A DNA stretch of 64,000 nucleotides from contig JAJVIK010000004.1 in assembly GCA_022072055.1 (NCBI GenBank), forward strand, positions 212,820 to 276,819. Reading direction: 5' to 3'. The position numbers were made by a program, and so were the translations under genes. Numbering within the stretch: position 1 is the first letter of the stretch; each line of letters opens with the position of its first letter. This DNA comes from a bacterium (GTDB taxonomy: Bacteria > Hinthialibacterota > Hinthialibacteria > OLB16). Of this stretch, positions 58,535-64,000 are shown piece after piece. Under the pieces are notes generated by a model, which saw only the letters and a list, made by a program, of their open reading frames with translations, was not told the origin of the DNA and made no database searches.

Positions 58535-59737
58535 ATGACCCTCGGCATGGTCGATTTGGATGATAAAGTTCACGGCATGCTCCTCTTGGGGGCCTACGGG
58601 GATGCCCTCGGCGCGACGACCGAGGGGAAACCCCCACCCATTCACCTCGTGATTCGCCTCCCCTTCAGCCGCACCATCCACGCCGGAACGGGTGGCCCCT
58701 GGCGGTGCTGGCTCCCGGCCGACCGCATCCCCGCCGACACGGTCGGGATGGTGACCGATGACACGCTCTTCCGGCACTTCCTCTGGATTCCATTCCTCGA
58801 AAGGACGGCAAGGACGAAAGGGACTGCATCCGAGGAGTCCTTTATCCGGTTCCTGGAGGAAGAACTGAGGAGGTCGGTCGATTCCGCCGGGAGCGCCCGC
58901 TTGGGGGAGGGCTTCGCGAGGAATCGGGAGGCCCAGATACGCGACTGGCTGGCAATGTTCGCGGCGGCGCGAGCCGGAGAGAGCAGCCCCCAGGCGGAAG
59001 CGTGCTTCTTCAAGTCCGGCCAGCCGATCTGCTTCGGCTTGTTCATGCTTCCGACTCTCGCCGCCTGGATGGTCCACGCCAGGGACGAGGAAGCGTTCGA
59101 CTCCTTCAGTCGGTTTCTGTCTTTGGACCAGGGGCACGCCAAGGAGGCCGCGGGAATGCTCGGCGCGTGGACAGCTCGCGCGCTCGCGGAGGATCCCTCG
59201 AAGGTCGATCGGCCCACCGAGTGGCTCCGGGAAAGCTGGAAATCCCTCCTCCCGGTTCTTCGCTCTCGCGGGGAAAGGACCGCGGCGGAGCGAATCGAAA
59301 AGACGGTGGACCTCTTCCTGGACCTCGCGCGGGAGGTTGAGGGAGCGGGCTTGGAGGCAACCTGTCGCCGCCTTCATGCGCAACGTTCCAGCCCTCTTCC
59401 CACGGGGGTCACCGGCCTGGGGTTTGATCCGGCTGAGTTTCTCGCCGTGATCGCCTTTGCCCTGGAGGCGAGTCGGGATGACCTCCACCGGGCATTTGTA
59501 CTGATTGTGAACTCGGGCGGCGACACCGACACGCTGGCCTCGGTGTTCGGACAGCTGGTCGGGGCCCTCTTGGGTGAGCGATGTCTGCGCGAGAGATGTT
59601 CCCCGGAGATGCTCGAAGACGTTGGGTTTGTGGAACGAACGGCAAGGGGATTGTTCGGAATCGAATGGAGGATCGAGGGACTATCGTCGCCGGAAACTCA
59701 CCTGCTCATGCCTCACTCCACCGCCTTCCGGCTTTGA
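58535..59737 (+). CDS. ADP-ribosylglycohydrolase family protein
   Basis: 400 residues. GMLLLGAYGDALGATTEGK, MVTDDTLF (the acidic DD pair) and the C-terminal IVNSGGDTDTLASVFGQLVGALLG are the metal-binding signatures of the ADP_ribosyl_GH (DraG/ARH-like) fold. Such enzymes remove ADP-ribose from proteins, nucleotides or DNA. No partner ADP-ribosyltransferase lies in the window. Its 3' end overlaps recR by 25 bp tail to tail. An ATG four codons downstream is an alternative start. Confidence 0.87.
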   Translation: MTLGMVDLDDKVHGMLLLGAYGDALGATTEGKPPPIHLVIRLPFSRTIHAGTGGPWRCWLPADRIPADTVGMVTDDTLFRHFLWIPFLERTARTKGTASEESFIRFLEEELRRSVDSAGSARLGEGFARNREAQIRDWLAMFAAARAGESSPQAEACFFKSGQPICFGLFMLPTLAAWMVHARDEEAFDSFSRFLSLDQGHAKEAAGMLGAWTARALAEDPSKVDRPTEWLRESWKSLLPVLRSRGERTAAERIEKTVDLFLDLAREVEGAGLEATCRRLHAQRSSPLPTGVTGLGFDPAEFLAVIAFALEASRDDLHRAFVLIVNSGGDTDTLASVFGQLVGALLGERCLRERCSPEMLEDVGFVERTARGLFGIEWRIEGLSSPETHLLMPHSTAFRL

Positions 59738-60327
59738 ATGGCAACCGAAAGGGTGTCGGCGTCGGCATAAGCCAGATCGCCGCCCATCGGAAGACCGCGC
59801 GCGAATCGCGTCACCGCAATGCCCAGATTGAGTCCGTGGATCACCCCCTTGAGATAGGCGGCGGTGGCCTCGCCTTCCACCGAGGGGTTGGTGGCGAGGA
59901 TGATTTCCCGGACCTCGCATGAGCGCAAGCGCTCCAGAAGCTCGCGGACCCGGAGTTCGCCGGGTCCGATCCCATCGAGCGGAGAGAGTGTCCCGCCAAG
60001 GACATGATAGAGGCCGTGATAGGCGTCGGTGCGCTCCACCGAGAGCACATCCAGCGGTCCCTCCACCACGCAGATCTCCGTGCGGACCCGTGCGGAGTCC
60101 ACGCAGATCCAACAGGGATCGGATTCGGTGAGGTTTCCGCAAAGGGAGCAATGCCGAATCCTCTCGGGGATCGCGGCGATGGTTTCGGCAAGGGCGCGCA
60201 GTCGCTCGGGCGATTCGGCCACAAGATGGTACGCGAGCGCGGTGGCGGACTTGGGGCCGATTCCGGGCAGGCGGTTGAGCTCGGCGATCAGGCTTTCAAC
60301 CGTGGGGAGGTTCCTGAAGGACTTCAC
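59713..60327 (-). CDS. recR: recombination protein RecR
   Basis: 204 residues. The helix-hairpin-helix LNRLPGIGPKSATALAYHL is followed by the zinc finger Cys60, 63, 72, 75 and the Toprim strand CVVEGPLDVLSVERT. HVLGGTLSPLDGIGPGELR and LATNPSVEGEATAAYL are diagnostic. With RecF/RecO it loads RecA at gaps. It overlaps ybaB by four bases (ATGA). Confidence 0.97.
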   Translation of the reverse strand: MKSFRNLPTVESLIAELNRLPGIGPKSATALAYHLVAESPERLRALAETIAAIPERIRHCSLCGNLTESDPCWICVDSARVRTEICVVEGPLDVLSVERTDAYHGLYHVLGGTLSPLDGIGPGELRVRELLERLRSCEVREIILATNPSVEGEATAAYLKGVIHGLNLGIAVTRFARGLPMGGDLAYADADTLSVAIQSRKAVE

Positions 60328-60659
60328 AGACCAAGGTCCATTCCGGGCGGAAGCCCGAGTCCGCCGGTGAGCTCGGCGAGTTTCGCGCGACGGTGTTCGG
60401 CCAGATTCTGATTGAAGCTGTTGATCGCTGCGAGGACCAGGTCCTCCAGCATTTCGACATCCCCCCGCTGGACCGTGGCGGGATCGAGGTCCACGGATTG
60501 GACGGTTCCATCGGCGCGCCCCTTGATGCGCACAAGGCCGCCGCCGGAAACCCCCTCGGCGGGAGTCTCCACAAGGGACTGCTTGAGCGAATCCACTTTC
60601 TGCTGGATGTCGCGCGCGTTCTTGATCAGATTCGCCAGATCACCAAAACCCTTGAGCAT
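60324..60659 (-). CDS. YbaB/EbfC-family nucleoid-associated protein
   Basis: 111 residues. MLKGFGDLANLIKNARDIQQKVDSLKQSL is the coiled N-terminal part, GGGLVRIKGRADGTVQSVDLDPATV the core, and DLVLAAINSFNQNLAEHRRAKLAELTGG the typical end. YbaB binds DNA and coats the nucleoid. dnaX-ybaB-recR is the widespread arrangement, here with 26 bp and a 4 bp overlap as spacings. Confidence 0.95.
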   Translation of the reverse strand: MLKGFGDLANLIKNARDIQQKVDSLKQSLVETPAEGVSGGGLVRIKGRADGTVQSVDLDPATVQRGDVEMLEDLVLAAINSFNQNLAEHRRAKLAELTGGLGLPPGMDLGL

Positions 60660-60685
60660 GTTCGCACCTCACCCCATCGCCATGG

Positions 60686-62461
60686 TTAGCGGTTGGGATT
60701 ATTTCGTATTTCGAGGATGACTCCATCAAACTGTTCGAGGAGGGTCTTTACAGCCGGCTCCGCCTCCGTGACCTCGTCCGCCGAGAAGACTGGAGCCGAA
60801 GCGGGAGGGGGGGTCTCCACAACGGCCAGCTGCACCCGAGGAAGCTCCGCCCGGGCCACACCCCGGATCGAAACCTCGGCGCGAACCCCGAAGTGCTCCC
60901 AGAGGACCGCCTTGAGGACCTCGCGCGCCTTGCGGGAGCCGAGCTGGCTGATGTGGTATTCCAAGTCGTTGGGCAGCGCGAGCTCCAACACGCCATCCGA
61001 GTAGGCGATGGGGGCGGCGTCCCCCAGGTAACCGCCATAGCGAATGTCCCGATCAGAGACATGGTGGCAGAAGGTCGCCCACTGCTCGCCGAGCGTGTCG
61101 ATCAGATCCTTTTCCGGCTCCTCATCCATCCGGATGGCGACCTTGGGCACGGCCGGATCGGGTGGAGTGGAGCTTAAACGAGCCGAAGCATTTTCAAGGT
61201 CCTTGGGCGGGCCTAAGGTCTCCGTAAGAGGGGCGATCTTCATCGGAGCGGGCGGACCAACCCGCGCGCGCGACTCCTCGGGGAGAGGCGCGACCGGGCG
61301 ATTCGGAATTCCCCCGCCGCCGAGGAGCGCTTCGATCTCGACCGTGGTGGGCATCTTCGCGAGCTTGATCACCACCGCCTCGCAGACCGCGCGCGGCGAG
61401 CCGGTCGAACGCAGACGGCGCTCGGCCTCGAAGAGGATGTCGATCCCCTGAAGAAGGTCCTCCAGTGCGAAGCGCGCTCCTTGTTCGGCAAGCTGTCGCG
61501 ACTCCTCTTGAGGGAGTCCGAGGAGGTCGGGATGGTCCGGCGCCGACCTGGCGACCATCAGGTTGCGGAAGTGCCAGAGGAGGTCCTTGACCAGATGGGC
61601 CATGTCCTGTCCGCGATGGTGGGCCTCGTGGATCAGATCGAGGGCGCGAAGCACATTGCGGGTTCGGATCGACTCGGCGATTTCGGAAAGCGTGTCGAAA
61701 CGCACGCCGCCGAGCAGGAGCTCGACCTCCTCCAGGGTAAGCGACTCATCCGCAAGGCTCGCCACCTGGTCGAACAGGGATTGAGCGTCGCGCATCCCCC
61801 CCTCGGAGGTTCGCGCGATCAGATAGAGGACCTTCTCACGGATGGCTTCGGGGATGCGGGAGCCTTCCTCCGACCGCAAGCACTTCCGCAGGTTGGCCAC
61901 GGTCTGCTCCAGGGAAAGCGGGCGGAAGCGGTATTGCTGGCAACGCGAAAGGATGGTGTCCAGCATCTTGTCCGCCTCGGTGGTGGCTAGGATGAACTTG
62001 GCGTGCGGCGGCGGCTCCTCCAAGGTTTTGAGGAGCGCGTTGAACGCGTCCTTGGTGAGCTGGTGGGCCTCATCGATGATGTACACCTTGAAACGGCACA
62101 TGGTGGGTGGGAAGCGGACATTCTCACGGAGATCGCGGGCCTCATCGATGCCCCGATTACTCGCGGCGTCGAGCTCGATCACATCCAGCGCGCGCCCTCC
62201 GGTGATCGAACGACAGCTCTGACACTCGTTGCAGGGCTCGCCATCCGCGGGGCTTTCGCAGTTGATCGCCTTGGCGAGGATGCGCGCGGTGGAGGTCTTG
62301 CCCACTCCGCGCGGACCGCTGAAGAGGTACGCGTTGGCGAGACGATCCCTGCGCACCGCGTTGCGGAGAGTGTGGGTGATGTGATCCTGTCCGGTCACTT
62401 CCGCGAAGGTTTGCGGCCGAAACTTGAGCGCGCTGACAACGAAACGATTCTGATCGTTCAT
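60686..62461 (-). CDS. dnaX: DNA polymerase III subunit gamma/tau
   Basis: 591 residues from the ATG ending at 62461 (MNDQNRFVVSALKFRPQTF). The Walker A sequence GPRGVGKTSTA starts at about residue 49, the zinc cysteines are at 68, 77, 80 and 83, and the Walker B is YIIDEAHQL. EPPPHAKFILATTEADKMLDTILSRCQ (SRC sensor) and domain III follow. The C-terminal third is tau-like, Pro-rich then a small polymerase-binding fold. No A-rich slippery heptamer for a gamma form was noticed. Clamp loading in the replisome. Confidence 0.96.
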   Translation of the reverse strand: MNDQNRFVVSALKFRPQTFAEVTGQDHITHTLRNAVRRDRLANAYLFSGPRGVGKTSTARILAKAINCESPADGEPCNECQSCRSITGGRALDVIELDAASNRGIDEARDLRENVRFPPTMCRFKVYIIDEAHQLTKDAFNALLKTLEEPPPHAKFILATTEADKMLDTILSRCQQYRFRPLSLEQTVANLRKCLRSEEGSRIPEAIREKVLYLIARTSEGGMRDAQSLFDQVASLADESLTLEEVELLLGGVRFDTLSEIAESIRTRNVLRALDLIHEAHHRGQDMAHLVKDLLWHFRNLMVARSAPDHPDLLGLPQEESRQLAEQGARFALEDLLQGIDILFEAERRLRSTGSPRAVCEAVVIKLAKMPTTVEIEALLGGGGIPNRPVAPLPEESRARVGPPAPMKIAPLTETLGPPKDLENASARLSSTPPDPAVPKVAIRMDEEPEKDLIDTLGEQWATFCHHVSDRDIRYGGYLGDAAPIAYSDGVLELALPNDLEYHISQLGSRKAREVLKAVLWEHFGVRAEVSIRGVARAELPRVQLAVVETPPPASAPVFSADEVTEAEPAVKTLLEQFDGVILEIRNNPNR

Positions 62462-62654
62462 GGACTTCGATCCTACCGAAAGCCGGGCGCGAGGTGTAGG
62501 GTTCGCGCCGCGCGTGCAAGGTCGCGCCGCCGGACGGATGTTGATCACGCTCATGCTTACGTGTTGACACGCCGATAATGAACCGCGACGATGGATGGCA
62601 TGAAGAGATTCGGAACCGAGGTAAAAAAAAATGCGCGCGAAAATGTTTTCTTCC

Positions 62655-62683
62655 TTGACAACGCGCGATCAAGAATTTAACTT
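62655..62683 (+). promoter_or_regulatory. sigma-70-like promoter of the histone-like minigene
   Basis: A perfect TTGACA (62655-62660) is followed after 17 bases by TAACTT (62678-62683). The start of transcription would be near 62,690. The stretch upstream (62,462-62,654) is the divergent dnaX leader and contains an isolated TTGACA at 62564 without a matching -10. Confidence 0.55.
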
Positions 62684-62692
62684 TACGTCGAT

Positions 62693-62793
62693 GTCTCGGA
62701 GGGGAACGAGACTGTGGACCTTGGAGGACCCGCTGATCGGAATGCCGATCGACCCAAGGGATCAACGGAGCCGGTGATGCAGTTGCCGTCCGT
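62693..62793 (+). promoter_or_regulatory. structured 5' leader of the histone-like minigene
   Basis: Four complementary pairs follow one another: GTCTCG/CGAGAC (62693-62698, 62707-62712); CCTTGG/CCAAGG (62719-62724, 62754-62759), which encloses GATCGG/CCGATC (62735-62740, 62745-62750); and ACGGA/TCCGT (62765-62769, 62789-62793), with an inner CGG/CCG. The predicted 5' leader of about 135 bases is therefore well folded right up to the ribosome-binding site. It matches no riboswitch class I recognise. Confidence 0.5.
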
Positions 62794-62825
62794 GACCACT
62801 CATAAACGGGGGAGGTGAATGACCC

Positions 62826-62936
62826 ATGGCCGCAGCGAAGAAGGCTGTAAAGAAGGCCGCCAAGAAAGCCGCCAAGAAGACGGCGAAGAAGGCCGCCAAG
62901 AAGTCGGCGAAGAAAGCCGCCAAGAAGGGCAAGTAA
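62826..62936 (+). CDS. 36-residue histone-H1-like Lys/Ala-rich peptide
   Basis: The peptide begins MAAAKKAVKKAAKKAAKK and continues with the same four-residue beat, a KK pair every fourth position eight times, ending GK; 17 of 36 residues are lysine. This resembles the C-terminal tail of histone H1 and bacterial H1-like proteins (AlgP, HctB-type), which bind and compact DNA without a fixed fold. GGGGGAGGTGA ends eight bases before the ATG. Another ATG at 62819 opens a 61-codon frame over the same region, but its product is a Glu/Arg/Gln repeat with no known analogue. Single-gene unit with its own promoter and terminator. Confidence 0.75.
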   Translation: MAAAKKAVKKAAKKAAKKTAKKAAKKSAKKAAKKGK

Positions 62937-63032
62937 GCCCCTTCCCGACATTGACGCCTGCAATTCACGCGTACCGGCCCGTCGCTTTACGACGCGTCGA
63001 GTGACAGGCTCTACGAAAAGAAGTGTATACTG

Positions 63033-63063
63033 GCGCCCGGTTCCACCGGGCGCTTCTTTTTTT
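63033..63063 (+). terminator. intrinsic terminator after the histone-like minigene
   Basis: GCGCCCGG (63033-63040) and CCGGGCGC (63046-63053) form a perfect eight-base GC stem with the five-base loop TTCCA, followed by TTCTTTTTTT. This is a textbook Rho-independent terminator, about 97 bases after the peptide's stop codon. Confidence 0.92.
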
Positions 63064-63110
63064 ATATCCCCTTTTTTTCGGGATCGTGACGCGAGCTCGA
63101 GAACAGGGTT

Positions 63111-64000
63111 CTATTCGCCTCCGCCGGAGTCGAAGGTCGAAGACTTGACCGACACATAGTTCCGATCCAGCTCGTCTTGGAGCAGGAGGATACCGGCGAT
63201 GCGTCGAGCGATCCCGGTCAGCTCCTTGGCTTCCTCGGGCTTTAGCGCCCTCCCAAGCAAGTCTCGCTCCCGGTAGCTCAACCATTTCTTGAGGACTTGG
63301 TAACCGCCGATGTGAAACTCCCACACGGCCGCGGGGATGTTGCGCCAGTAAACGGAGTCATTGAGGTAAACATCGAGGGTCTCGGCCCCGAGTTGCCGGA
63401 TCGCGCGGCTTGCGGTCAGGTGGTTCAACTTGGCCTCGGCGTGCAGCGCTTCCCGCTCCTCGGGGATGTAAGCGCGCGCCACGGCGCGCCCCTTCCCCGG
63501 CATGGTGACCCCCGCCTTCCCGGCATGGCCCCACCCCACGGTGATCGCAAGCCCTTCGCCCCCCGTGTCGATGTGTCCTCCTCCCGCCTGGGTGACTGGA
63601 GCGACAGACCGGAAGAACGCACCCAGCTTCCCGGCGGTGATTCCGGGAACCTCTCGCTCCGTGTCGAGCAGAGTGGCGACCTGCTCCCCCAGCGCGGCTG
63701 AGGCCTCGAGCGCCTTGCGACTGTTCGGAAGCGGGATGCGCGGCCAGTCGCGGCGGAGACCATCGGCGTTTTCGGCGAGGTAAGCGGGGCTATAACCGAT
63801 GGCGAGCGCGTGCATCCAGATCAGCGAGGCTGTCTTGGGATCGGAGTCCGGGTCCCTGATCTTGAGTTTGGCGAGGTAAGCGCGCGCGGACGGGGAGAGG
63901 TTGGCGTGGGTCTCTCCATTTTCAAACAGTCCGTTCTCACGCTTTCCCCCACCGAATCCATTTGAAAGCAGAAAAGGGAAATGCCTTGCGTGACCGGAAA
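63111..64000 (-). CDS. type ISP restriction-modification enzyme-like protein (partial, C-terminal part)
   Basis: The frame enters from the right edge and ends at 63111, giving about 296 C-terminal residues. MHALAIGYSPAYLAENADGL, DWPRIPLPNSRKAL, the LGAETLDVYLNDSVYW segment and VWEFHIGGYQVLKKWLSYRE are patterns I associate with the C-terminal specificity region of type ISP enzymes (single-chain nuclease-helicase-methyltransferases) and related N6-adenine methyltransferases. The catalytic motifs lie outside the window, so activity cannot be judged. It converges on the histone-like unit, whose terminator lies between them. Confidence 0.6.
   Translation of the reverse strand, partial: SGHARHFPFLLSNGFGGGKRENGLFENGETHANLSPSARAYLAKLKIRDPDSDPKTASLIWMHALAIGYSPAYLAENADGLRRDWPRIPLPNSRKALEASAALGEQVATLLDTEREVPGITAGKLGAFFRSVAPVTQAGGGHIDTGGEGLAITVGWGHAGKAGVTMPGKGRAVARAYIPEEREALHAEAKLNHLTASRAIRQLGAETLDVYLNDSVYWRNIPAAVWEFHIGGYQVLKKWLSYRERDLLGRALKPEEAKELTGIARRIAGILLLQDELDRNYVSVKSSTFDSGGGE

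What the first reader, a model, noticed from the sequence alone, without database searches (positions are those of the whole stretch)
62655..63063. Self-contained histone-H1-like minigene with folded leader and strong terminator
A 36-residue peptide of pure KKxA rhythm has its own TTGACA promoter, a leader of about 135 bases with four stem-loops, a GGGGGAGG ribosome site and a perfect intrinsic terminator. Most H1-like bacterial proteins are much longer and carry a folded domain. A peptide this small with such an elaborate leader could be an abundant DNA-compacting factor under RNA-level control, or a dual-function RNA.
Basis: partly seen in the sequence, partly recalled or inferred. Interest (0 to 1): 0.7.

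Follow-up and report, generated by a model that had tools for sequence, protein, structure and literature searches.

The report
Structured leader RNA on H1-like minigene
A tiny stand-alone bacterial gene for a lysine/alanine-rich, DNA-packing-type peptide carries a previously uncatalogued folded RNA in front of it and a second one behind it, and both are better preserved between related bacteria than the peptide itself, which suggests that the message is regulated at the RNA level.

Summary
Window 62655-63065 is an autonomous gene: a TTGACA promoter with an upstream A-tract, a ~135-nt leader, a perfect Shine-Dalgarno, a 36-aa KKxA ORF and an intrinsic terminator. The genome belongs to Candidatus Hinthialibacterota. 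All three genomes held for the family, each in a different genus, carry the gene; none of the 11 genomes of the phylum's other families has the leader, nor do about 370 genomes of other phyla.

Folding one sequence gives no signal (z = -0.35). Comparison does: the leader forms a 5' hairpin plus a three-way junction with many compensatory changes. 97% of pair cells are kept against 26-44% in slid controls, with 8 double-sided changes in three sequences. Between two genera the leader is 85% identical and a newly found hairpin element after the stop codon is 92%; coding DNA is 65-78%, and the ORF differs in length (36, 54, at least 50 aa).

No Rfam family matches. Best reading: an mRNA for an H1-tail-like nucleoid peptide with a new family-restricted cis-regulatory RNA controlling translation or stability. 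Transcription, ligand and direction of control are untested. The leader is one compound fold rather than "four stem-loops".

The parts
62623..62631 (+). A9 tract, UP-element-like, 23 nt upstream of the -35
   Evidence: A/T tracts of 9-12 bases lie 21-23 nt upstream of TTGAC in all three genera
62655..62683 (+). Promoter: TTGACA, 17-nt spacer, TAACTT; start of transcription inferred near 62690
   Evidence: Same spacing in G001 (TTGACA-17-TAACGT) and G002 (TTGACT-17-TATTTT). The -10 is weak against consensus and was not called
62693..62712 (+). P1: 5'-terminal hairpin GUCUCG[GAGGGGAA]CGAGAC
   Evidence: One compensatory C-G to U-A change between G000 and G001; re-formed with other bases in G002, but there it overlaps the predicted -10, so G002's P1 is provisional
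62714..62799 (+). Three-way junction: P2 GUGG 62714-62717 / CCAC 62796-62799; P3 CCUUGG 62719-62724 / CCAAGG 62754-62759; P4 GAUCGG 62735-62740 / CCGAUC 62745-62750; P5 UCA-A-CGGA 62762-62769 / UCCG-UGA 62789-62795, with tip helix GGUGAU 62773-62778 / GUUGCC 62782-62787
   Evidence: RNAalifold consensus with 2 double and 2 single consistent changes and no broken pair; third genus found by covariance model; pair counts
62808..62818 (+). Shine-Dalgarno GGGGGAGGTGA, identical in all three genera
62826..62936 (+). ORF of 36 aa, KKxA repeat (17 K, 14 A), H1-tail-like
   Evidence: orthologues of 54 aa (G001) and at least 50 aa (G002, cut by the contig end) start MAAAKKAV, with synonymous differences in those codons
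62956..63010 (+). Conserved hairpin element after the stop codon (GCCUGCAAUUCAC...CGGCCCGUCGCUUUACGACGCGUCGAGUGACAGGC)
   Evidence: 92% identical over 59 nt in G001, E = 1.1e-17; nearly all differences fall in one internal loop
63032..63061 (+). Intrinsic terminator, 10-bp stem and T-run
   Evidence: G001 has a terminator of different sequence at the same place

Best explanation
This is a monocistronic gene whose mRNA (about 376 nt) encodes a short, disordered, Lys/Ala-rich polycation like the tail of histone H1 / Hc2 / AlgP, most likely a nucleoid (DNA-binding) peptide. The mRNA begins with a family-specific folded leader (5' hairpin plus three-way junction, leaving a perfect SD outside the conserved fold) and ends with a conserved hairpin element before the terminator. 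The leader most likely acts in cis to set how much peptide is made: the conserved fold protects the 5' end and presents the SD, and a factor (the peptide itself, another protein, or a small molecule) binds the junction and shifts translation or mRNA stability. Shown: gene anatomy, conservation and covariation of the leader, conservation of the 3' element, coding constraint on the first codons. Inferred: start of transcription, peptide function, cis-regulation. Speculative: identity of the bound factor.
For: Leader upstream of the KKxA ORF in three genera of one family and nowhere else in 386 genomes. 85% identity G000/G001 with compensatory changes; third genus found by model and independently located directly upstream of an H1-like ORF (R2 E = 6.4e-8, though R2 includes that sequence). 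Pair test: 97% paired, 8 pairs with double changes, 0 of 500 shuffles as good, slid controls 26-44% paired. In 20 kb of the window this is the only non-coding match to G001, and its leader exceeds the coding matches of 65-78%. Gene order (divergent permease) conserved between G001 and G002. Downstream gene in the window is convergent, so the RNA serves this ORF.
Against: No expression data. Only three sequences, and the third was fitted to a model built on the other two. Single-sequence folding is no better than shuffles, and with the start of the ORF included the predicted ensembles prefer alternatives that partly pair the SD. P1 in G002 overlaps the predicted -10. No switching partner for the SD is conserved across all three.
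Confidence: 0.6

Rival explanations
1. The RNA is a principal product: a dual-function or 3'-UTR-derived regulatory RNA, with the KKxA peptide as the less constrained partner.
For: Both UTR elements (85% and 92%) are better conserved than the ORF, which varies in length and repeats; single copy, own promoter and terminator.
Against: Start codon, SD and N-terminal codons are conserved with synonymous changes, so translation is selected. Repeats evolve fast in all H1-like proteins (PMC2848022), so a variable ORF is expected.
Confidence: 0.18
2. Plain high-expression mRNA: the leader and 3' hairpin merely stabilise the message (5' hairpin, perfect SD, 3' hairpin plus terminator), without sensing anything.
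For: A-tract, consensus -35, perfect SD, terminal hairpins.
Against: Mere stability would not need sequence-identical junction segments such as GGGAUCAACGG...CCGUGACCA across genera.
Confidence: 0.2
3. The leader is a coding leader peptide (uORF starting GTG 62714, AUG in the relatives) that controls the main ORF.
For: A start codon lies at the same place in all three and the frame is open for 28-36 codons (read by eye).
Against: A one-base indel in the P4 loop shifts the frame between G000 and G001, peptides are not conserved, and G002's frame ends elsewhere; changes follow pairing, not codons.
Confidence: 0.04
4. The peptide mainly binds another polyanion (polyphosphate, RNA, PHA granule surface) rather than compacting the chromosome.
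For: AlgP, with an H1-like KPAA tail, associates with polyP granules (PMC9239181).
Against: No granule-specific domain; sequence alone cannot discriminate between polyanions.
Confidence: 0.2

Closest known systems
HC2 / Hc2 (hctB) and BpH1, bacterial histone H1-like Lys-rich repeat proteins (Pfam PF07382)
   Same: Low-complexity Lys/Ala repeats, fast length variation, DNA-binding type composition
   Different: Hc2 165-237 aa and BpH1 182-206 aa (PMC2848022) against 36-54 aa here; Pfam HC2 reached only E = 0.27 for the 54-aa G001 orthologue and nothing for the window peptide
AlgP / PhaF C-terminal KPAA domain
   Same: H1-tail-like disordered Lys/Ala/Pro repeat; G001's version carries KAAP units
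   Different: AlgP has a 124-aa N-terminal domain and a 195-aa tail (PMC9239181); here the repeat is the whole protein
hctA regulated by sRNA IhtA in Chlamydia trachomatis
   Same: Precedent for RNA-level control of an H1-like protein's translation
   Different: IhtA acts in trans by covering the AUG (PMC4355289); here the RNA is a conserved cis leader
Structured cis-regulatory leaders (riboswitches, ribosomal-protein leaders, cold-shock leaders; general knowledge)
   Same: Three-way-junction leader upstream of an SD, covariation
   Different: No Rfam match at gathering scores in the window, and none to the leader at E up to 10; limited to one bacterial family; no identified ligand or conserved expression platform

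Membership tests
Bacterial histone H1-like proteins (HC2, PF07382) | Score above the Pfam cut-off (40 bits) | tested here: not met
   No match for the window peptide, 11.7 bits for the G001 orthologue; short low-complexity peptides are handicapped in such scans
Bacterial histone H1-like proteins (HC2, PF07382) | Lys/Ala-rich tandem repeats with length variation | tested here: met
   36, 54 and at least 50 aa orthologues with K and A dominating
Bacterial histone H1-like proteins (HC2, PF07382) | DNA binding / nucleoid condensation | not testable with these tools
   needs an assay
Conserved structured leader RNA (as a class) | Structure kept through compensatory changes across species | tested here: met
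   manual P3/P4 pairing in G002
Conserved structured leader RNA (as a class) | Consistent location upstream of the same gene | tested here: met
   three of three family genomes
Any described Rfam family | Match at or above gathering score | tested here: not met
   the best sub-threshold matches (ncS54, TarB) are to the terminator region
Riboswitch | Ligand binding and switching of expression | not testable with these tools
   no conserved anti-SD or antiterminator partner seen; searches give only sequence-specific alternatives

The most novel reading that the evidence does not exclude
The leader is a new class of sensory RNA (riboswitch-like or protein-autoregulated) that couples a cellular signal to chromosome compaction in Hinthialibacteraceae, together with a 3' element that is itself functional: one small mRNA in which the untranslated parts are the main conserved actors.
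Probability: 0.2. Interest if true: 0.72.

Novelty: new variant of a known kind. Interest (0 to 1): 0.52.

Why it matters
RNA-level control of nucleoid proteins is known in few cases (IhtA/hctA is the precedent read here). A covarying leader tied to a minimal H1-tail gene gives a concrete, small (about 110 nt) object in a nearly unstudied phylum with which to ask how cells control polycation dose. It is also a candidate new RNA family for Rfam, and it shows that single-sequence folding statistics can miss a real RNA.

Tried and rejected
(1) Single-sequence fold as evidence: z = -0.35, not usable. (2) Rfam: no match in the window at gathering scores, none to the leader at E up to 10. (3) Pattern AAGGGATCAACGGAGCNGG over 84,980 species genomes: 7 hits, about the number expected by chance (own estimate); only L066, the G001 contig, is real by covariance model. 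(4) Core pattern in viral contigs: 6 hits; no match with R1, and at best 14.9 bits (E = 0.17) with R2, taken as chance. (5) 25-nt match in G008 (L063): no KKxA ORF seen in the sequence read around it, taken as chance. (6) R2 hit in G013 at E = 3.4: no KKxA gene seen beside it, taken as chance. (7) Plasmids and phages: nothing. (8) uORF reading: frame broken by an indel. (9) Attenuator of a downstream gene: the downstream gene is convergent in the window. (10) Pairing between leader and 3' element: duplex predictions differ between G000 and G001. (11) In one search the printed probabilities for some short arms (P2, P5 base) hit the wrong occurrence of the motif and were not used. (12) The 92% 'mean column identity' is a different measure; true leader identity is 85%.

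Full report
What is there. Window positions 62655-63065 (+) hold a complete small transcription unit between dnaX (divergent, minus strand) and the 3' end of a convergent type ISP restriction-modification gene fragment. It has TTGACA with a 17-nt spacer to TAACTT, an A9 tract 23 nt upstream, a leader of about 135 nt, the SD GGGGGAGGTGA, a 36-codon KKxA ORF and a terminator with a 10-bp stem and T-run.

Is it more than chance? By folding alone, no: the leader's energy is ordinary for its composition (z = -0.35). By comparison, yes. The window lies in G000 (5.86 Mb, 96.6% complete). In G001, a different genus, the leader is 85% identical (E = 2e-34) and every difference in a helix is compensated or neutral: 2 pairs change on both sides, 2 on one side, none is broken. 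As a control, a 20-kb stretch of the window against G001 gave only coding matches of 65-78% besides this locus.

Third genus. In G002 a contig-end H1-like ORF (MAAAKKAVAKKRATKK...) is preceded by a strongly diverged leader. A covariance model made from G000 and G001 only, run unfiltered on three short loci, picks exactly this place (16.6 bits, E = 0.008 in that small search); in the genome-wide scan with stricter filters it had been missed. On the model-fitted alignment 97% of pair cells are standard pairs, 8 pairs have double-sided changes, 0 of 500 shuffles do as well, and slid controls pair only 26-44%. The fit to the model favours the structure, so the strongest points are those visible by eye: P3 CCUUGG/CCAAGG becomes CCCCAU/AUGGGG, the P5 pair A-U becomes U-A, and the tip helix GGUGAU/GUUGCC becomes GGUAAU/GUUACC and GGAUA/UAUCC. 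The strings GGGAUCAACGG and CCGUGACCA and the SD are identical in all three. Caveat: P1 of G002 overlaps its predicted -10, so P1 there is provisional.

Distribution. Core pattern and models find the leader once per genome in 3 of 3 family genomes and in none of the other 11 genomes of the phylum, nor in about 370 genomes of other phyla, phages, plasmids or, credibly, viral contigs. G001 and G002 share the neighbouring divergent permease (44% identity); in the window the neighbour is dnaX, so the unit has moved as a whole.

The 3' element. Between stop codon and terminator, 62956-63010 is 92% identical to G001 over 59 nt (E = 1.1e-17) and forms a long hairpin in which almost all differences fall in one internal loop. 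The stop-to-terminator region is also more stable than shuffles (z = -3.3), but that figure includes the terminator. G002's contig ends before this point.

The peptide. The first eight codons specify MAAAKKAV in all three genera with only synonymous differences, so translation is under selection; beyond that, length and repeat pattern vary (36, 54, at least 50 aa), as is usual for H1-like repeat proteins (PMC2848022). Pfam HC2 is reached only weakly (E = 0.27 for the G001 version), so membership in HC2 is not claimed; 'H1-tail-like' describes composition. Other short stand-alone K/A-rich genes exist in the phylum (35 aa in G005) with unrelated leaders.

Mechanism. Most likely the leader is a cis-acting element that sets translation or stability of the message of a nucleoid polycation. 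In the conserved fold the SD is outside the helices; when the ORF start is included, thermodynamic predictions favour partly SD-pairing alternatives in each species but with different partners, so no conserved switch can be named. What binds the junction (the peptide itself, another protein, a metabolite) is unknown. IhtA control of hctA in Chlamydia (PMC4355289) is a precedent for RNA-level control of an H1-like protein, though in trans.

Verdict. The finding is a good candidate new, family-restricted structured RNA attached to an otherwise ordinary kind of peptide gene.

Noticed in passing
window 63111-63998 (-): C-terminal part of a type ISP restriction-modification enzyme (PF18135 specificity domain, E = 1.5e-18), convergent with the minigene; the frame runs off the window's end.
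   Followed up: partly
window 59713-62461 (-): dnaX (from an internal ATG at 62461) followed by genes that look like ybaB and recR, read from their sequences; the dnaX homologues were searched in relatives.
   Followed up: partly
window 62819-63004 (+): An out-of-frame ATG directly after the SD opens a 61-codon frame across the KKxA ORF; the ATG is absent in G001 and G002, so it is probably not used.
   Followed up: partly
L004 1492-1600 (G005): Another stand-alone 35-aa KKxA gene with its own terminator but an unrelated upstream region, in another family of the phylum.
   Followed up: partly
L006 and L025 (G002, G001), also L014 (another phylum): Long KKxA/KAAP-rich C-terminal tails on an enzyme whose conserved part looks like pyruvate phosphate dikinase (recognised by eye, not searched).
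   Followed up: no
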